From: an uncultured Lentisphaeria bacterium
GTDB lineage: Bacteria > Verrucomicrobiota > Lentisphaeria > Victivallales > UBA1829
Direction: 5' to 3'
Length of the DNA stretch: 35,732 nt
Assembly (NCBI GenBank): GCA_949282305.1
Contig: CASDPB010000023.1
Location: 1-35,732, forward strand
Shown here: piece by piece, positions 1 to 15,657 of the stretch
How positions within the stretch are numbered: position 1 is the first letter of the stretch
Layout of the letters: every line of letters begins with the position of its first letter
Translations under genes and position numbers: made by a program
Notes under the pieces: model-generated
What the model was told of the DNA's origin: nothing
Databases searched by the model: none
The model's input: the letters and a program-made list of their open reading frames with translations, nothing else

Positions 1-112
1 CAAGGAATAGGGAAGTAAGAACAATTGAACAAGGAATAGGGAAGTAAGAACAATTGAACAAGGAATAGGGAAGTAAGAACAATTGAACAAGGAATAGGGA
101 AGTAAGAAGGAT
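1..112. repeat. 29-bp tandem repeat array, 3 full copies plus a partial copy
   Basis: Copies start at 1, 30 and 59 and are identical; a fourth starts at 88 and follows the unit until about 108, then changes to a GGAT ending. Each unit contains the words AAGGAATAGGGAAGTAAGAA and CAATTGAA. The array begins at the window edge, so it may continue upstream. Its last 15 bases (98-112, GGAAGTAAGAAGGAT) recur exactly in inverted orientation at 559-573, beyond the four-helix-bundle gene. The array and that gene therefore appear to form one cassette. Confidence 0.95.
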
Positions 113-126
113 TGCCAGGGAAAATA

Positions 127-501
127 ATGAGTGGACAGGAGAAATTTAATTTACAGGAACGTTTGATTCGGTATTCTGTCCGTGTGATAAATGTGTGCAA
201 TGCTCTGCTTCCGACAGATGCCAGGTCTCATATTTATGACCAATTATTGCGAAGCGGGACAGCTGTTGCTGCCAATTATGCAGAGGCGCAAGGTGCTGAA
301 TCACGAAATGATTTTATTCATAAGGTGAAAATTTCTCTTAAAGAATTACGGGAGACGGAAGTCTGGCTGAAAATTATTATGGAGGCAAAACTGGTAAAAT
401 CCCCGGGGAGTTTAAACACGTTGCTGGATGAGACCGGTGAGTTGATTGCAATTTTTGTCCGTTCAATCCGGACAGCAAAGGAAAATAATTTGAAAAAATG
501 A
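127..501 (+). CDS. four helix bundle protein (23S rRNA IVS-encoded / S23 family)
   Basis: This 124-residue protein matches the PF05635/TIGR02436 family of small four-helix-bundle proteins. Helix one holds ERLIRYSVRVINVCNALL, followed by the typical RSGTAVAANYAEAQGAESRNDFIHK stretch (seen as SGTAVAANYAEAQGA near residues 45-60), then KISLKELRETEVWLKII and a last helix ending in SIRTAKENN. Relatives are encoded in intervening sequences of 23S rRNA genes, and Avd of diversity-generating retroelements shares the fold; the role of free-standing copies is not settled. The ATG at 127 is preferred, with AGGGA five bases upstream; a TTG at 112 in the same frame would add five residues but sits on the repeat boundary. 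The gene is more AT-rich than its neighbours and is enclosed by inverted repeats, which suggests a mobile or duplicated cassette. Confidence 0.85.
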   Translation: MSGQEKFNLQERLIRYSVRVINVCNALLPTDARSHIYDQLLRSGTAVAANYAEAQGAESRNDFIHKVKISLKELRETEVWLKIIMEAKLVKSPGSLNTLLDETGELIAIFVRSIRTAKENNLKK

Positions 502-558
502 GGTATGACCAAATTTTTTCTTGGGTGAACAGGCTGCGACTGAAAACGGAGAGGGAAT

Positions 559-599
559 ATCCTTCTTACTTCCTTGTTTCCTGTTCGATGTTCTTACTT
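559..599 (-). repeat. inverted, diverged copy of the 29-bp repeat
   Basis: Read on the minus strand, this stretch resembles about 1.3 units of the array at 1-112. Positions 559-573 are the exact reverse complement of 98-112 (15 of 15 bases). After a diverged middle, 583-599 again resembles the unit (GTTCGATGTTCTTACTT against GTTCAATTGTTCTTACTT in the complement). It lies 31-70 bases upstream of the glgA start codon, so it forms part of the glgA leader or promoter region. Confidence 0.8.
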
Positions 600-629
600 T
601 TAGATAAAGCATAATTTTGGAGGCTGTAT

Positions 630-2099
630 ATGAATATTGTGTGGGCTGCCAGTGAATCGGTTCCTTACGCGAAGACGGGAGGGCTGGCGGATGTGTCGTC
701 GGCTCTGCCGAAGGCGTTGGCGCGGCGCGGACATTCGATTCATGTCATCATGCCGTATTATCCGCAGCAGATGGCGAAGCTGAACCTGAAATTCGATTCC
801 GTGCATGAGATGCTCGGTGTGCCGTTCGGAGCGGGGAACGAGTGGGCGCAGATCCGGATACTGAAAGTGCAGGAGAACCTTACCTATTGTTTTATCGAGT
901 TCAACCGTTTTTACGACCGCGCGACGCTTTACGACTGGAACGGCTCGGAATACCCGGACAACGCGCAGAGATTCATCTTTTTCTCACGCGCCGTCATGCA
1001 GACGATACTCGCGCTCGGGCTCCAGCCGGATATCCTTCACTTGAACGACTGGCACTGTGCTCTCTGCTCCGTTTATCTGCGCAGCAGTCTGTATTCCGGA
1101 TTCAGGAACTTTGCGAACTGCCGTTCCGTCATGACGATCCACAACATCGGCTATCAGGGGGTCTACGATCAGGGCAACCTGTACTGGACCGGGCTCGGGT
1201 GGGAGTATTTCAATTTCCGGTGTCTGGAGTTTTACAACCGCCTGAACCTGCTCAAAGGCGGCATCATGTGCGCGGATATGGTCAGCACGGTCAGCCCGAC
1301 GTATGCCGAGGAGATTCTGTCACCCGGATTCGGGTTTTCGCTGGATCCCTCTCTCCGGCACTGCGCATATCAGGGCAAGCTGCGCGGCATACTCAACGGA
1401 ATCGACGTTTCCGAATGGGGACCGGAGAACGACTCGCGCCTTCCCGCGATGTTTTCCGCGGACGACATGAGGGGAAAAGCTGTATGCAAGGCGGCGCTTC
1501 AGAAACAGTTCGGACTGCCGGTCCGTGCAGATGTGCCTCTGTTCGGCGTGATTTCGCGTCTCGCCTATCAGAAGGGACTGGATGTTTTTGCCGACGCTCT
1601 GGAGGACATGCTTTACCATAACGATTACCAGTTTGTACTGATCGGCTCCGGTGATCCCGGGCTTCAGGGAAGATTTTCTTATCTCGCCTCAAAATATCCG
1701 GAAAGATTTGCCGCCTACATCGGCTATGCTTCGGATAAGGTTTCGCATCTGCTGGAAGCCGGCTCGGACTTTTTTGTGATGCCGTCACGCTACGAGCCCT
1801 GCGGTTTGAATCAGATGTACAGTATGCGCTACGGAACCTTGCCGATTGTGCGGAACACCGGCGGGCTTGCGGACACGGTCAGGAACTACGATGCGGACGA
1901 TCCTTCCGGCTCGACGGGATTTGTGCTGTGGGATTTGAATCCTGTTTCCCTGCGGAATACGATCCGCTGGGCGGCGGAAGTGTATCTCGAACACCCCGAA
2001 GCGATTGCGCGTCTGCGCCGCAACGGGATGACTGCGGATTTCTCCTGGAACAATACCGCATCGCAATATGAAAAGATGTATGACGATGCACACAAGTGA
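630..2099 (+). CDS. glgA: glycogen synthase (ADP-glucose starch glucosyltransferase), GT5
   Basis: The 489-residue product has the usual GlgA length and order: an N-terminal GT5 domain opening with WAASESVPYAKTGGLADVSSALP, which contains the KTGGL ADP-glucose-binding loop, the VMTIHNIGYQG stretch in the middle, and a C-terminal GT-B half. That half has LFGVISRLAYQKGLD near residue 305 and PSRYEPCGLNQMYSMRYG near residue 387, the E-X7-E region of retaining GT-B enzymes. It transfers glucose from ADP-glucose to the non-reducing end of glycogen in the cytoplasm. The start has a strong GGAGG six bases upstream. Its 3' end overlaps queA, so the two genes are probably cotranscribed; no other glg gene is in the window. 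Confidence 0.96.
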   Translation: MNIVWAASESVPYAKTGGLADVSSALPKALARRGHSIHVIMPYYPQQMAKLNLKFDSVHEMLGVPFGAGNEWAQIRILKVQENLTYCFIEFNRFYDRATLYDWNGSEYPDNAQRFIFFSRAVMQTILALGLQPDILHLNDWHCALCSVYLRSSLYSGFRNFANCRSVMTIHNIGYQGVYDQGNLYWTGLGWEYFNFRCLEFYNRLNLLKGGIMCADMVSTVSPTYAEEILSPGFGFSLDPSLRHCAYQGKLRGILNGIDVSEWGPENDSRLPAMFSADDMRGKAVCKAALQKQFGLPVRADVPLFGVISRLAYQKGLDVFADALEDMLYHNDYQFVLIGSGDPGLQGRFSYLASKYPERFAAYIGYASDKVSHLLEAGSDFFVMPSRYEPCGLNQMYSMRYGTLPIVRNTGGLADTVRNYDADDPSGSTGFVLWDLNPVSLRNTIRWAAEVYLEHPEAIARLRRNGMTADFSWNNTASQYEKMYDDAHK

Positions 2100-3138
2100 T
2101 TTCGACTATGAGCTGCCGGAGGAACTGATCGCGCAGCATCCTCCGGAACATCGCGGCGACTCGCGCATGCTGGTGCTGGACCCTGCGGCAGGTTCGATGA
2201 AGATCGTTCCTTTCCGGGAGTTTCCGGATTATTTCAATGCCGGCGATCTGATCGCGGTCAACAACACGAAAGTCATCAAGGCGCGTCTCTTTGCAAGGAA
2301 AGAGAGCGGGGCGAAGATTGAGATCATGTTGCTTTCGCCTGTCACGGACACCCGCTGGAGCTGTCTGCTGAAACCTGCCAAACGTGTGGCGCCGGGGACG
2401 GTTCTGCGGCTCCTTGAGCCGACGCTCCGTGAATCGGAAAAAAGCGTGCGTCTTGTCTCCAAGGACATCGACGGGAATTGTATCGTCGAGTTCCTGGAAC
2501 ACGATGTGGAACAGACACTTGCACAATGCGGACACATGCCGCTGCCTCCGTATATCCGGCGGACTGCCGATTATGCCCCCGATGCGGAACGTTACCAGAC
2601 CGTCTATGCAAAGACTCCGGGAGCGGTCGCCGCTCCGACTGCCGGACTGCACTTCACGAAAGAGATTCTTGCCGCGCTCGCGGAAAAAGGCGTGAAGGAG
2701 GCGGAACTGACGCTTCACGTGGGACAGGGAACGTTCAAGCCGGTGACGGTGGAGAACATTGAAGAACATCCGATGCACAGCGAGCATTTTATCCTGTCGC
2801 CCTTTACCGCCGGACTGCTGAACGGAACCCGCCGTGCGGGCGGACGCATTGCGGCAGTCGGAACGACTTCGCTCCGCGCGCTGGAATCGTGCGTAGGGGA
2901 GGACGGCTGTTTCGAGGCGGCGGAGAAGGATACTTCCATCTTCATTTATCCCCCTTACAAAGTGAAGTCCATTGACATGCTTCTGACGAACTTCCATCTG
3001 CCGAAAAGCACGCTTCTGATGCTGGTTTCCGCTTTTGCCGGATATGAGCTTGTGATGGAGGCCTATCGTTACGCGGTGAAGGAGCGGATGCGTTTTTTCA
3101 GTTACGGTGACTGCATGTTGATTCTGAATAGGATCTGA
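2086..3138 (+). CDS. queA: S-adenosylmethionine:tRNA ribosyltransferase-isomerase
   Basis: QueA transfers the ribosyl moiety of SAM to preQ1-modified tRNA to make epoxyqueuosine. The protein opens with the family-typical DFDYELPEELIAQHPPE and contains DLIAVNNTKVIKARLFARK, APTAGLHFT and TLHVGQGTFKPV, then ends with LLTNFHLPKSTLLMLVSAFAG. Its length of about 350 residues is normal. Three in-frame ATGs (2068, 2080, 2086) lie inside the end of glgA; 2086 is chosen because family members start only a few residues before DFDYELP, although 2080 is nearly as good. The overlap with glgA is 14 bases, which implies translational coupling between unrelated functions. The SAM-dependent queuosine step is not otherwise represented in the window. 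Confidence 0.95.
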   Translation: MHTSDFDYELPEELIAQHPPEHRGDSRMLVLDPAAGSMKIVPFREFPDYFNAGDLIAVNNTKVIKARLFARKESGAKIEIMLLSPVTDTRWSCLLKPAKRVAPGTVLRLLEPTLRESEKSVRLVSKDIDGNCIVEFLEHDVEQTLAQCGHMPLPPYIRRTADYAPDAERYQTVYAKTPGAVAAPTAGLHFTKEILAALAEKGVKEAELTLHVGQGTFKPVTVENIEEHPMHSEHFILSPFTAGLLNGTRRAGGRIAAVGTTSLRALESCVGEDGCFEAAEKDTSIFIYPPYKVKSIDMLLTNFHLPKSTLLMLVSAFAGYELVMEAYRYAVKERMRFFSYGDCMLILNRI

Positions 3139-3475
3139 TGTCCGGATTCTGTTTTCCTCCCTGGAGTTTTTATACGGGAAACCGTCTGAAGCCGCGAGGC
3201 TTCGCATTGCGGAAAGAGAATCGCGCGGAAATGCTTTCTGCCGCTGACGGAATTTTCCGAACCGCCGTTTTTCCGGGGGAAATTGTTACGTTCCGGATCC
3301 TTCTGCTGTCTGCATGACCGTATTTTTTTCAAAAAAACTTTGTTTTTCTTTTTCCGGGGACTTGAAATAATTTGAAATGGGCTCATGTTAACCCGGAAAC
3401 AGGGAATGCCTTTCATAAATTGGAAAAATCAGCCAAAATCAACTCAACCACAGGATTCTGACGGGATCTGCAATT
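3139..3475. other. 337-bp intergenic region, no gene seen
   Basis: No open frame here looks like a protein. A perfect hairpin lies at 3188-3203 (GAAGCC, GCGA loop, GGCTTC), a GNRA-type tetraloop stem without a following T tract, so it is not a standard terminator. An A/T-rich stretch follows at 3330-3355. TTGAAA words occur at 3362 and 3372, but no good -10 box lies at the proper distance. A promoter for the ABC exporter is expected here but cannot be placed with confidence. Confidence 0.6.
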
Positions 3476-5281
3476 ATGACGGAATTTAAGGTTTCCAGCC
3501 TTATCAGGCAGTATCGCGGACTGATTTTACTATCAGCTCTGACCTCCGTAATGTTCTCCAGTCTGGCACTGACGATGCCGCTGATGTTGAAGCTCGTGAT
3601 CGACCGCGTTCTGCCGTCGCGCGACTGGGCGCTCTTTTTCCTGCTGGCAGCGGTCATGATCGCCATTTACATTCTGCGGTTTACGATGCGCATCATCACC
3701 GGGTATCTCGGCACGTATACCGTGACGCGCATCCTGCTGGATGTCCGGCAGCGTATTTTCAGACATCTGCAGAGCCTTTCCCTGCGGTTTTACGAGGAAT
3801 ACCGCACCGGAAAGCTGATTTCAAACGTCATCAGCGATGTGGCGCTGCTTCAGGGGTTGATTACTCTCTGCATCAGCATGGTGGATCAGTTTTTCACGAT
3901 GGCGTTCATCACTTTTGCGGTGTTTTTCATCAACTGGAAACTTGCCCTGATTGCAATGTGCGCGCTACCGATTCATTTTGTCAATTTTTTCGTGTTCAAT
4001 AAAATAATACGGAAGAACGCATTGCTGATGCAGGAGAAGATGTCCGAAATTTCCGCGAATCTGGCTGAGACGATCAACGGAATCCGTGTTGTGAAATCCT
4101 TTTCCAAAGGGCGCGCGGAAAGTTTGCATTTCTTCAAGAACATGCGTCCGACGCTGGAGCTTGCGATCAAGATGAATCAGGAGGGAAACATCTGTCACGG
4201 CACTTATGAAATGCTGACGCTGTTTACGTATCTGATTGTGATCTGCGGGGGAATTTTTGCTGTCGGAAACGAGTTCTCCATCGGCGACTTTGTGGCGTTT
4301 TATACGTATATCGGTCTGCAGGTCGGGCCGATTGCGGTGCTGGCGTCTCAGATGAACATTTTGTCGCAGGGGCTTGCCGGGGCGCAGCGCATCATGAAAC
4401 TGCTGAAAGTGATTCCCGATATTACGGATGCCCCGGATGCCGTCGATGCGGGGCGGCTGACCGGCAGGATTGAATTCAGTCACGTTTCATTCAAATATGC
4501 GGATACGCCTGTGCTGCGCGATTTTTCACTGAAGATCGAACCCGGCGAGAAGGTCGCTCTGGTGGGGCCCTCCGGCTGCGGAAAATCAACAATCAGCAAT
4601 CTGCTGCTGCGCTTTTATGACGTGTGCGACGGTTCCATCACGGTGGACGGCAAGGACATCCGCACGTTTACGCAGGACTCCTACCGTTCCAACATCGGTG
4701 TGGTTCTTCAGGAACCTTTCCTGTTCAGCGGCACGATCCGCGACAATCTGGCGTATGCCCGTCCCAGCGCCTCCATGGAGGAGATCAGGGAGGCGGCGGA
4801 ACTTGCAAATGTGGCGGAATTTGTGGAGAAGCTGGATAAGAAGTACAATACGGTCGTGGGCGAGAACGGCGCCAGTCTTTCCGGCGGTCAGAAACAGCGG
4901 ATTGCGATTGCGCGCGCCGTCTTGAAGAATCCGGGAATTCTGCTTCTGGACGAGGCGACCAGCGCGCTGGATACGGTTTCGGAGAAACTGGTTCAGCAGT
5001 CGCTGGATACGCTGATGGAGGGGCGGACGACGATCATCATAGCGCATCGTCTTTCCACGATTCGCAACGCGGATAAGATCGTTGTCCTCAAAGGCGGTCA
5101 GATTGAGCAGCTCGGCACGCATGACGAACTGATGGCGCAGGAAGGCACATACCGCAAACTTTACACCACGCAGCAGAAAGCCGCCGCCGAAGACGGTATG
5201 GAAGATCATGACAACATCTTCTACCGGCAGCATCCGAAGGCTCTTGAAATGGAGCGCATTGCCCGGCGGCGCTGGAAATGA
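3476..5281 (+). CDS. ABC transporter, fused permease and ATPase (MsbA/exporter type)
   Basis: This 601-residue half-transporter has an N-terminal six-helix ABC exporter membrane domain (about residues 15-310) and a C-terminal nucleotide-binding domain. The latter shows Walker A GPSGCGKST (about 364), a Q-loop region VVLQEPFLFSGTIRDNLAY, signature LSGGQKQRIAIARA, Walker B ILLLDEATSALD and the H-loop IIAHRLSTIRNADKI. Such proteins act as homodimers in the inner membrane and export lipids, glycolipids or drugs. Resemblance to MsbA makes lipid A-core flipping plausible, but no lipid gene is adjacent and the substrate cannot be read from sequence. The charged tail after residue 560 is not conserved. 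The ribosome-binding site is weak (GGGAT about ten bases upstream). Confidence 0.93.
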   Translation: MTEFKVSSLIRQYRGLILLSALTSVMFSSLALTMPLMLKLVIDRVLPSRDWALFFLLAAVMIAIYILRFTMRIITGYLGTYTVTRILLDVRQRIFRHLQSLSLRFYEEYRTGKLISNVISDVALLQGLITLCISMVDQFFTMAFITFAVFFINWKLALIAMCALPIHFVNFFVFNKIIRKNALLMQEKMSEISANLAETINGIRVVKSFSKGRAESLHFFKNMRPTLELAIKMNQEGNICHGTYEMLTLFTYLIVICGGIFAVGNEFSIGDFVAFYTYIGLQVGPIAVLASQMNILSQGLAGAQRIMKLLKVIPDITDAPDAVDAGRLTGRIEFSHVSFKYADTPVLRDFSLKIEPGEKVALVGPSGCGKSTISNLLLRFYDVCDGSITVDGKDIRTFTQDSYRSNIGVVLQEPFLFSGTIRDNLAYARPSASMEEIREAAELANVAEFVEKLDKKYNTVVGENGASLSGGQKQRIAIARAVLKNPGILLLDEATSALDTVSEKLVQQSLDTLMEGRTTIIIAHRLSTIRNADKIVVLKGGQIEQLGTHDELMAQEGTYRKLYTTQQKAAAEDGMEDHDNIFYRQHPKALEMERIARRRWK

Positions 5282-5454
5282 GAGACGAAGCGCGGACCCG
5301 GAGAAAAGCTGACGGCGGATGAAGGGATTGCGGCAGTGCCGGAAGAAGAGGCGCCGGGCTGTTCCCCGCCGTATGCTTCCGCTCTTTTTTCCATTTCATC
5401 CTGTTTCCCGCCTTCTTCTCCTGCCGATTCCTCTTTTATCGTTTGCTTTGCTCC

Positions 5455-5483
5455 TTGAAACTTGCCGGCAGGGGAGATATATT
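5455..5483 (+). promoter_or_regulatory. sigma-70-type promoter for purO
   Basis: TTGAAA at 5455-5460 and TATATT at 5478-5483 are separated by 17 bases. Transcription would begin near 5490, about 30 bases upstream of the purO ATG. The preceding 170 bases after the ABC gene hold no recognisable gene, only a pyrimidine-rich stretch at about 5375-5450. Confidence 0.55.
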
Positions 5484-5521
5484 TCCTGGTTATTTTCAAC
5501 ATTCAAAGAAAGGACAGACTC

Positions 5522-6163
5522 ATGTATATTGGCAGAATCGTCGCGGCGGGCATGACCCCGAACGGAAATGTAACAGCAGCTTACCGGGTGTCTTCCCGTT
5601 CGTTTCCGAACAGAACGGCACGGCTTGACGGAGAAACCGTTGCTATCATGCCGAGACCCGGATACGAGTCCGATCTTGCCAGAAGTCCTTACATTGCTTA
5701 TAACGCGGTTCGCCTTTCCGGTTCCGTTGCGCTTGCCACGAACGGTTCGCAGACCGATCCCGTGATCGAAAAAATCGCAATGGGAATGCCGGTGCGCGAC
5801 GCCATGACGCTGGTTCTTCTCGCAATGGACTATGAGAAGGATTCGCTCTCCACGCCGCGTGTCTGCGCCGCCGTCGATGCGGTCAGAAAGGTTGCGACTC
5901 TCGGCATTGTCCGCAGGGACGCCGTGCTTGTCCGCGAGTTTGAACTTGCCCCCGGAAAAATGTTCTATGTTTCCACATACGAGAAGAACGCGCCCTGCAA
6001 ACACAATCTCGACGAGGTGTTCAATGCGGAGCACGCCGACGACATCTGCGAATATATGATTTCCGGCGGCGTGTTTGCCGGATTTGAGAAACCCGTCACT
6101 GCGGCGGCGGCTGTCTGGAACGGCAGGAAATATGAACTTGCGACAGCGGATGCCGCGGTCTGA
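5522..6163 (+). CDS. purO: IMP cyclohydrolase, archaeal PurO type
   Basis: The 213-residue protein resembles archaeal PurO (PF07826), which closes FAICAR to IMP in the last step of purine synthesis. Conserved landmarks are MYIGRIVAAG at the N-terminus, AYRVSSRSFPNR (about residues 20-31), SPYIAYNAVRL, ATNGSQTDPV, RDAMTLVLLAMDYEKDSLSTPR, VSTYEK and KPVTAAAAVWNG near the C-terminus. Most bacteria use the bifunctional PurH instead, and PurO is unrelated to it in sequence. The ATG at 5522 is chosen because it follows AAAGAAAGGA and matches the archaeal N-terminus; an upstream in-frame ATG at 5462 would add 20 residues of poor fit. It has its own promoter and lies 20 bases before the helicase gene, so the two may be cotranscribed. 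Confidence 0.88.
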   Translation: MYIGRIVAAGMTPNGNVTAAYRVSSRSFPNRTARLDGETVAIMPRPGYESDLARSPYIAYNAVRLSGSVALATNGSQTDPVIEKIAMGMPVRDAMTLVLLAMDYEKDSLSTPRVCAAVDAVRKVATLGIVRRDAVLVREFELAPGKMFYVSTYEKNAPCKHNLDEVFNAEHADDICEYMISGGVFAGFEKPVTAAAAVWNGRKYELATADAAV

Positions 6164-14600: not shown

Positions 14601-15657
14601 CGGCTGGTATGCCGCGTATTCCAGCATTGGGCGCAATGCCCCGGAAGTCATCTGGAACGGGGAGATGTGGCGCGCGGGTTCGCAGGATAAACTTTACGGC
14701 AATACACTCTATGATTACAGCATGGACATGATAGAGGTATGCAAGACGAAGGATTATTCCGACTTTTATCTCTGGCGTTTCGACAAAAGCAGAAAAGAGC
14801 ATCCCCGCGTTGACGGGCTTTACTTCGATCTGATGTTCTGGCCGGCATGCACGAGAGAGGATCACGGGCACGGCTATACGGATGAGAACGGAAAACGCAA
14901 GCCGACCTACGCGATCCGGGAACACAGAAAATGGCTTGAACGGCTCTATCTCTATTGCAAGGAGAGGGCGGACGGAGCACCGCTTATCATGCATCTTTCC
15001 GGTGCGACTTCGCGGGTTGCCGGATTCAGTTATGCTGATTATTTTCTCGACGGAGAGCTTTGGCAGGAAAAGCTGGTCAGCGATCGTTCCTATAAGGCGA
15101 TGACGCTGGACTGTCTGCGCGCCGAGATTCTGCCGCATATCTGGGGACCCGGTCTGATCTGGTGCAGCCAGCTTTACCGCATAGCACCTTTCGTGCCCGC
15201 CGGACAGCGGAAAACATGGAAGCTGGAACCGTGGGCGGAACGACATATGGCGGGAATGCTTCTGCTTCATGATGTGATTCCGGACAGAACTTCACAGAAT
15301 GACACGGCATGGAAAATCTGGCTGGCGCTGGACCGTTTCCAGTTGTCGGACAAGGATCTTTTCCTGCCGTATTGGGAAACGTGCGGCATTTCCGGAAATG
15401 CCGATGGCGTGAATACCGCTGTCACTGCCTATCTCAACGCCGGAGAGAAACGCATGCTGATGGTTCTTTTCAACAACAGGGACACGGAATACAGGTTCCG
15501 GATTGCTCCGGATATTCGCAGATTGTTCGGGGCGTCAGGCACCGTTGACGGAGAGGATCTGGAAACCGGCGCGGAGCTGTTCCGGGGGCAGGACGAATTC
15601 ACGCTTGATGTCCCGAAGCGCGACTTCCGGCTGATTGAGCTGAAATTCCGACAGTGA
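11668..15657 (+). CDS. large secreted protein with LamG-like, CBM9-like and DUF6067/GH-like regions
   Basis: The 1329-residue protein starts with a signal peptide (MKICLIYAVLLSVLSAWADE). Residues 20-240 look like a concanavalin/LamG-type sandwich. Residues 256-454 resemble CBM9-type sugar-binding domains: APLIDGEITEAEWGNV, VRIGYDEQAVYIALK, LWEDDGIEFYVSP and YYQFIVNYRGAVFDQ. A beta-rich linker follows. From about 674 to the end the sequence resembles DUF6067-type glycoside-hydrolase-like proteins, with PFWIGSEKGGLSFGIESAENWR, VDGLYFDLMFW near 1050 and YFLDGELWQEKL near 1125, which supply several acidic candidates for catalysis. The catalytic residues and substrate are not established. The start at 11668 is preferred over 11650 because GGAG lies just upstream and the signal peptide then begins the protein. 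The next gene follows 14 bases after its stop. Confidence 0.8.
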   Translation: MKICLIYAVLLSVLSAWADERLVFSCDFTNGFLPQVCIQPCDIFPKGVKIVDTEDGKALRFGKGKDGSISCLTYRLKSSVNPEKLAEDELPFPMRFGRLEFRFRPVDWSLGDPPFNMMLKLEGPLRTNLHLTYTRPHSTGIASLQAAYGQYQNPAVGKGKLPVIFPLVKLDGSRKWHKAVFEWKPDMVKLTADGESVILATKNLAYPRSKFYAEQLQIGSPFDVLLRGETEIADIRIYSTLPEKKSSSALPERFPELTVNAMKAPLIDGEITEAEWGNVSRYTGFSKLPGAAVGHHQPVVRIGYDEQAVYIALKSPGHKRPPVAEKDRRDGNLWEDDGIEFYVSPDRQRKEEYYQFIVNYRGAVFDQHFRAGASPVECQSWNSSGIRVASKTAGDARSMEIAIPFADFGKTMPAAGDCWYFNLCETLQGIGFFSMAPVANSYAEPGKFGILRFAGKDAPVIDFSSLGGLSGGAAEFRCGIKGCSPAQLEVNAMRYDETAQTEFPLFGETAAVSAEPRICFRAGEDKLGKTGTLYANIQHRGTRLYAGRFSYEVQRGAEVETMRRVVIQGKNFLKVSTAHNPDNSSRLRLTVIDKSGKTVITKTVPVTDMKQDTLLPLSGVPEGDYLLFLELLDRNGHVYRKSEARAFTVYGAVTPWQGCELVKTDHVPAPWTPLKVTEKDGRLSVSCWNRTYVFGPRSLFAEQIVTGGMNCLASPVRLDAVREKKKLELRNVAVKAVAVSERRAVIESAGVLKGQGTVKVRAEIDYDGFIWYQMELASGENMSFDRLAVTLEMPRNCSTLLNSGDRSLRNTGRTPVKWSKMLDDTFGPFWIGSEKGGLSFGIESAENWRNRDPGSQAVVRRDAGNAEISIQIIDRPAKMAKNLSYGFYVHPTPVRPRPENYRKVRVQYWFAHNRDQLAGKGYPSNLSWWMSSFTFQGYPEWVTDRTEIAEMDRKRANFGYLSRDYNHYDTLTKERCRSGWYAAYSSIGRNAPEVIWNGEMWRAGSQDKLYGNTLYDYSMDMIEVCKTKDYSDFYLWRFDKSRKEHPRVDGLYFDLMFWPACTREDHGHGYTDENGKRKPTYAIREHRKWLERLYLYCKERADGAPLIMHLSGATSRVAGFSYADYFLDGELWQEKLVSDRSYKAMTLDCLRAEILPHIWGPGLIWCSQLYRIAPFVPAGQRKTWKLEPWAERHMAGMLLLHDVIPDRTSQNDTAWKIWLALDRFQLSDKDLFLPYWETCGISGNADGVNTAVTAYLNAGEKRMLMVLFNNRDTEYRFRIAPDIRRLFGASGTVDGEDLETGAELFRGQDEFTLDVPKRDFRLIELKFRQ

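What the first reader, a model, noticed from the sequence alone, without database searches (positions are those of the whole stretch)
1..599. Four-helix-bundle gene enclosed by inverted copies of a 29-bp repeat: candidate mobile cassette
Seen: three identical 29-bp units and a partial one upstream, about 1.3 diverged units inverted downstream, and an exact 15-bp inverted repeat (98-112 with 559-573) at the inner borders. The gene between is AT-rich compared with its neighbours. Known: PF05635-type proteins are encoded in 23S rRNA intervening sequences and often occur as scattered genomic copies with no settled function. Inference: gene plus repeats may move or duplicate as one unit, possibly using host machinery, or the repeats may be the protein's binding target.
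Basis: partly seen in the sequence, partly recalled or inferred. Interest (0 to 1): 0.7.

Follow-up and report, generated by a model that had tools for sequence, protein, structure and literature searches.

The report
Four-helix gene boxed by inverted heptamer arrays
A tiny gene of the protein family known from 23S rRNA "intervening sequences" sits here between inverted arrays of short, about seven-base repeats; the same boxed unit turns up across many bacterial phyla and was gained here where three sister species have none, so it looks like a widespread, largely overlooked small mobile element.

Summary
Window 71-112 and 559-599 are inverted copies (alignment score 52; best of 546 other window segments 21). 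The left copy is amplified into a 29-bp array. The window starts at a contig end inside that array; contig C79 carries the other side, next to a rhomboid-type gene. Three congeners have that gene beside glgA with only a 63-65 bp spacer: an empty site.

The larger result is that this architecture is general. Of 78 PF05635 loci from many phyla, 61 have matching inverted flanks (decoys about 1-2%). The arms are arrays with a strict 7-nt period (a few lineages 8). Each pair of arms shares its own unit, and related proteins carry similar units. The protein is under purifying selection (dN/dS 0.03-0.10). In Nostoc plasmids the unit sits inside a methyltransferase gene, replacing 325 bp. In an Akkermansia-like genus, gene plus both arms were swapped together.

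Best reading: a free-standing relative of the 23S rRNA intervening sequence, whose Coxiella version is reported to have heptamers and a 28-bp stem. Insertion as a unit is well supported. Mechanism of movement, the RNA hairpin's role and heptamer binding are inferred. No paper found links these arrays to S23 genes generally.

The parts
1..108 (+). Left arm: 29-bp minisatellite (three full units 13-41, 42-70, 71-99 plus partial ends), cut off by the contig end; continues on contig C79:15251-15385
71..112 (+). Innermost left arm unit AAGTAAGAACAATTGAACAAGGAATAGGGAAGTAAGAAGGAT, one half of the terminal inverted repeat
   Evidence: aligns to the reverse complement of 559-599, score 52 vs null max 21-26
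127..501 (+). PF05635 (23S rRNA intervening-sequence / S23) four-helix-bundle gene, 124 aa, intact
   Evidence: 62.8 bits, cut-off 33.8; AF2 four helices, pLDDT 90; closest fold 2rld BT_0352, S23 family
559..599 (-). Right arm: about 1.4 diverged units in inverted orientation; outer border at AAGTAAGAAC (reverse strand)
68..601 (+). Predicted long RNA stem closing over the gene (about 68-112 pairing with 559-601)
   Evidence: MFE -168.5 kcal/mol, z = -4.2 against 20 dinucleotide shuffles; prediction only
630..2099 (+). glgA (glycogen synthase), right-hand host gene; in three congeners it directly follows the rhomboid-type gene that here ends contig C79

Best explanation
This is a free-standing IVS-type (S23) element: a 0.5-0.7 kb unit made of one PF05635 gene and two arms, each an array of degenerate ~7-nt repeats, in inverted orientation. 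It was gained between a rhomboid-type gene and glgA in this lineage. Shown: arms and gene form one insertion unit; the arms share a unit sequence that travels with the gene lineage; arrays grow and shrink by one unit; the protein is under purifying selection (in relatives); the same architecture recurs across phyla. Inferred: the unit persists as a selfish or semi-selfish element; its transcript folds into a hairpin that RNase III trims, as shown for 23S IVSs, which limits damage where it lands; the four-helix protein binds the heptamer arms as RNA or DNA; and movement uses host recombination or repair rather than a transposase of its own, leaving target deletions instead of target duplications.
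For: Empty site in all three congeners. Inverted arms at 61/78 PF05635 loci, shifted-window decoys 1%, gene-centred decoys 2/89; replicate 19/30 vs 2/60. Best period 7 or 14 in 56/57 upstream and 55/57 downstream arrays. Own partner arm is best match in 35/55, chance 1/55; protein identity vs arm similarity Mantel r=0.41, p=0.0002. 8/8 inspected plasmid records show it, so it is not a MAG artefact. Nostoc: unit inside a methyltransferase gene, 325 bp replaced, element 98-99.8% vs flanks 88-95% identical, one plasmid one 7-mer shorter in each arm. Akkermansia-like site 2: gene plus both arms differ as a block between genomes with 95-98% identical flanks. dN/dS 0.03-0.10. G023: 15 PF05635 matches and 190 array 21-mer matches, congener G008 none. 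Literature: Coxiella IVS has a 28-bp stem, GACAGAT heptamers and RNase III cleavage (PMC4990558).
Against: No movement was observed directly, and no enzyme is known. At the window site the ancestral spacer is too diverged to define exact junctions or a target duplication, and the joining of C79 to C23 is inferred. The PF05635 copy on C40 could not be tested, and the frameshifted C13 copy lies at a synteny breakpoint, so rearrangement could explain it. 17/78 loci lack clear arms. The 29-bp unit fits a strict heptamer only loosely (7+8+7+7). RNA hairpin processing and protein-repeat binding are not tested. Survey loci were chosen by similarity and are not phylogenetically independent.
Confidence: 0.65

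Rival explanations
1. Ordinary minisatellite slippage: the genome is rich in 7-mer simple repeats and the PF05635 gene merely happens to lie between two of them.
For: Heptanucleotide arrays are the most abundant simple repeats in most prokaryote genomes studied (Mrazek et al. 2007 as cited in PMC4679880); solo arrays occur in G000 and G023 away from PF05635 genes.
Against: Inverted matching arms at 78% of PF05635 loci against 1-2% of decoys; inverted 4-mer overlap 0.66 vs 0.19 direct or cross-locus; empty sites lack both arms and gene together.
Confidence: 0.06
2. Non-autonomous transposon (MITE-like) moved by a transposase in trans, the PF05635 gene being cargo.
For: Terminal inverted repeats, small size, multi-copy spread in G023 at a preferred target, the prepilin leader, with an apparent ~20-25 bp duplication.
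Against: Arm sequences differ completely between lineages, which a sequence-specific transposase would hardly tolerate; the Nostoc insertion has no target duplication and a 325-bp loss; gene under strong purifying selection, unlike dispensable cargo.
Confidence: 0.12
3. Retroelement: hairpin RNA of the unit is reverse-transcribed and integrated, the S23 protein acting like Avd in diversity-generating retroelements.
For: Fold resembles Avd (4dwl, TM 0.73/0.81) and Avd chains in DGR reverse-transcriptase complexes (8ub7); the RNA hairpin form is plausible.
Against: No RVT_1 reverse transcriptase in G000, G011, G045 (13 PF05635 matches), G069, G072, G133 (single contig, 6 matches), G067, G143.
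Confidence: 0.08
4. Arms are regulatory or RNA-binding sites of a stable autoregulated chromosomal gene, not ends of a mobile element.
For: Arm unit correlates with protein lineage; strong purifying selection and an occupied site shared by several Akkermansia-like species.
Against: Insertion inside other genes (Nostoc methyltransferase, prepilins), sporadic presence, multi-copy expansion in G023, element more conserved than its flanks.
Confidence: 0.09

Closest known systems
23S rRNA intervening sequence (IVS) with S23p ORF, e.g. Coxiella burnetii (PMC4990558)
   Same: Homologous protein family; ~430-nt unit; terminal complementary arms; heptameric repeats of variable number in the 5' arm (GACAGAT); low GC; sporadic distribution
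   Different: Lies between protein genes, not in rRNA; arms are lineage-specific arrays; protein in relatives clearly under purifying selection, whereas the Coxiella ORF is described as undergoing reductive evolution
PF05635 free-standing four helix bundle proteins / S23 family (PDB 2rld BT_0352, 2gsc XCC0516)
   Same: Same Pfam family and fold
   Different: I found no description of flanking repeats or element context for the free-standing members
Heptamer arrays (TAACTGA) of Beggiatoaceae, cyanobacteria and Bacteroidetes (PMC4679880)
   Same: Same 7-nt period, mostly intergenic, lineage-specific, suspected of spreading by an unknown mobile element
   Different: That paper makes no link to PF05635 genes or to inverted arm pairs
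Avd of diversity-generating retroelements (PDB 4dwl, 8ub7)
   Same: Similar four-helix fold
   Different: No reverse transcriptase in the genome
Drosophila Foldback (FB) elements (from memory, not tested)
   Same: Inverted termini built of short tandem repeats, associated with rearrangements
   Different: Eukaryotic, different coding content; analogy only

Membership tests
PF05635 / S23 protein family | Match above the curated cut-off | tested here: met
   62.8 bits vs 33.8
PF05635 / S23 protein family | Four-helix-bundle fold | tested here: met
   AF2 pLDDT 90; Foldseek top hits 2rld, 2gsc
23S rRNA IVS element | Located inside a 23S rRNA gene | tested here: not met
   Flanked by rhomboid-type gene and glgA; no Rfam match in window 1-6000; no 23S motif in any locus fetched by then
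23S rRNA IVS element | Complementary termini that can form a stem around the ORF | tested here: met
   Inverted arms; predicted stem, z = -4.2
23S rRNA IVS element | Heptameric repeats in the arm (reported for Coxiella; not known to be universal) | tested here: inconclusive
   7-nt period general in the free-standing family; in the window the unit is 29 bp = 7+8+7+7; rRNA members were not surveyed here
23S rRNA IVS element | Excision from transcript by RNase III | not testable with these tools
   Needs RNA from the organism
DNA transposon / IS / MITE | Transposase in the element or identified in trans | tested here: inconclusive
   No other ORF of 80 aa or more between the arms; no transposase with matching ends was searched for in the genome
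DNA transposon / IS / MITE | Target site duplication | tested here: inconclusive
   None in Nostoc, 325 bp replaced; window spacer too diverged; apparent ~20-25 bp duplication with mismatches at prepilin targets
Diversity-generating retroelement | Reverse transcriptase | tested here: not met
   No RVT_1 in the genome (96% complete)

The most novel reading that the evidence does not exclude
S23/IVP genes define a phylum-crossing class of miniature bacterial mobile elements with foldback-type ends: inverted arrays of lineage-specific heptamers recognised by the element's only, non-catalytic four-helix protein. rRNA intervening sequences and many orphan heptamer arrays in bacterial genomes are members or relics of this class.
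Probability: 0.4. Interest if true: 0.9.

Novelty: new variant of a known kind. Interest (0 to 1): 0.78.

Why it matters
The origin and function of 23S rRNA intervening sequences were still called unclear 25 years after their discovery (PMC4990558), and PF05635 orphan genes are very common. A shared heptamer-arm architecture, demonstrable empty sites, unit exchange and selection on the protein turn this into a testable mobile-element question. They also offer an explanation for at least some scattered heptamer arrays in bacterial genomes and for places where assemblies break.

Tried and rejected
Deep mixed alignment A1 as a search query: no conserved stretch; a closer subset A2 worked. 'Relatives of' a named locus: not accepted, so Bacteroides empty sites were not tested. 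C40 flanks: absent from congeners, uninformative. First Akkermansia-like alignments had mixed orientation; site 2 was redone. Phage collection: only two unannotated hits. Literature searches for PF05635 or four-helix proteins with arrays, and for AATTACG arrays, found nothing linking them; only open-licence PMC papers are held. Considered and rejected: CRISPR-like array (no spacers), DGR (no RT), chance repeats, assembly artefact as the source of the arms (finished plasmids show them).

Full report
WHAT IS THERE. Window 1-108 is a 29-bp tandem array, 127-501 an intact PF05635 gene, 559-599 an inverted diverged arm, 630-2099 glgA. The best inverted pair is 42 nt, 71-112 with 559-599, score 52; 546 other segments of the window reach at most 21 and 2000 shuffles at most 26. 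The window is the whole contig C23 (35,732 bp) and starts inside the array. Contig C79 ends at 15385 inside the same array, which there starts at 15251 directly on the stop codon of a rhomboid-type gene (gene name from its C-terminus, my reading). Copy number is therefore unknown.

EMPTY SITE. The genus has four held genomes. In the other three, glgA (89-90% identical) follows the same rhomboid-type gene with a spacer of 63-65 bp and no insert, and these genomes have no PF05635 match. The joining of C79 to C23 is inferred from the shared array plus this conserved gene order. The old spacer is not recognisable in G000 apart from the glgA ribosome-binding region, so exact junctions cannot be given.

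OTHER COPIES IN THE GENOME. C40:63937 has AATGAGT/C arms on the left and AATGAGA inverted on the right. C13:86440-86746 is frameshifted and has GCAAGATT/GCGAAGTT-type arms, inverted on the right. Each copy thus has its own repeat. The C13 copy lies where its two flanks are on different contigs, mid-contig, in all congeners: a synteny breakpoint. C40 was not testable.

SURVEY. The 80 best relatives of an eight-member profile were fetched from one-genome-per-species contigs; 78 had usable flanks. Local alignment of 300 bp upstream with the reverse complement of 300 bp downstream gives >=30 in 61/78, median 42. Windows shifted by 1.5-1.9 kb give >=30 in 1% of 281; same-orientation comparison and cross-locus pairs each give about 18%, as related loci share units. 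Gene-centred decoys: 2 of 89. A second set of 30 loci of all subfamilies from the host phylum: 19/30 against 2/60 decoys. Arrays with a clear period: 56/57 upstream and 55/57 downstream have best period 7 or 14 in the first set; some lineages of the second set have 8. In 55 loci with arrays on both sides the own partner is the best match in 35 (chance 1/55), and arm similarity rises with protein identity (Mantel r=0.41, p=0.0002). These loci are not phylogenetically independent and were picked by similarity. Eight PF05635 loci on plasmid records, most of them finished sequences, all show inverted arms with scores 38-63.

MOBILITY AND EXCHANGE. Nostoc plasmids: the unit (462 letters) lies inside a DNA cytosine methyltransferase gene in three plasmids; four others carry the uninterrupted gene. 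325 bp of target are missing in the occupied alleles and no duplication is seen. The unit is 98.0-99.8% identical where flanks are 88-95%; one plasmid is one 7-mer shorter in each arm. Akkermansia-like genus (name is my inference): at a sugar-kinase/fucose-isomerase junction, G143 carries a different element lineage from G067 although flanks are 95-98% identical, with both arms changed as well; at a second junction two genomes keep arms but lack the gene. dN/dS is 0.03-0.10 in five comparisons. G023 has 15 PF05635 matches and 190 matches to its AGGTATG array; its congener G008 has none. Of 48 sampled array sites in G023, 35 lie within 140 bp of a prepilin leader sequence. MAG assembly can be chimeric in such repeats.

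MECHANISM. Shown: a unit of gene plus arms is gained, lost, swapped and multiplied. Predicted only: a hairpin of about 45 pairs around the gene in RNA. RNase III processing is known for IVSs (PMC4990558), not tested here. Reverse transcription by a resident enzyme is unlikely, since element-rich genomes lack RVT_1. No enzyme for movement is identified; repair-type insertion with deletion fits Nostoc and perhaps the window, while the prepilin insertions look site-preferring.

KNOWN AND NEW. Warrier et al. 2016 (PMC4990558) report a 28-bp stem and variable GACAGAT heptamers in the Coxiella 23S IVS and call IVS origin and function unclear; MacGregor 2015 (PMC4679880) describes TAACTGA arrays without a link to S23 genes. 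I found no paper joining the two in the open-licence PMC library. The protein's fold matches S23 proteins 2rld and 2gsc and, more distantly, Avd. The element works like an IVS but fails the defining location test, so it is filed as a variant, not a member.

Noticed in passing
L068, L070-L073, L108, L110, L112, L118, L121, L122, L124 (G023); L033, L038 (G005); L052, L054 (G000): Array elements, with or without PF05635, repeatedly sit at the leader codons (FTLIELLV) of prepilin-type genes, with an apparent 20-25 bp duplication, and supply a new start codon for the downstream prepilin.
   Followed up: partly
L052 (G000:C101, around 2296 and 2506): Two tandem copies of a 210-bp gene-less element, each followed by a copied prepilin leader.
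   Followed up: no
L207, L211, L212, L214 (plasmids): PF05635 elements inside defence or restriction loci: between DISARM drmD and PglX, between cas2 and cas1, between hsdS and hsdR, next to a helicase/methyltransferase pair.
   Followed up: no
L051 (G000:C55:94343): A solo copy of the window's arm unit lies inside what looks like a phage-type open reading frame.
   Followed up: no
L022 (G019:C47): The array is read through in frame, giving the four-helix protein a repetitive PNTQHPT tail.
   Followed up: no
L178, flanks of 2501-2848: Both arms carry the same composite higher-order repeat over about 150 nt, suggesting homogenisation between the two arms.
   Followed up: no
L033 and L108, left element end (ATTCTGCTTGC... 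/ CACTACTTGC...): The sequence left of the arm in the prepilin-targeted elements may form a small hairpin that differs between genera but seems to keep its pairing.
   Followed up: no
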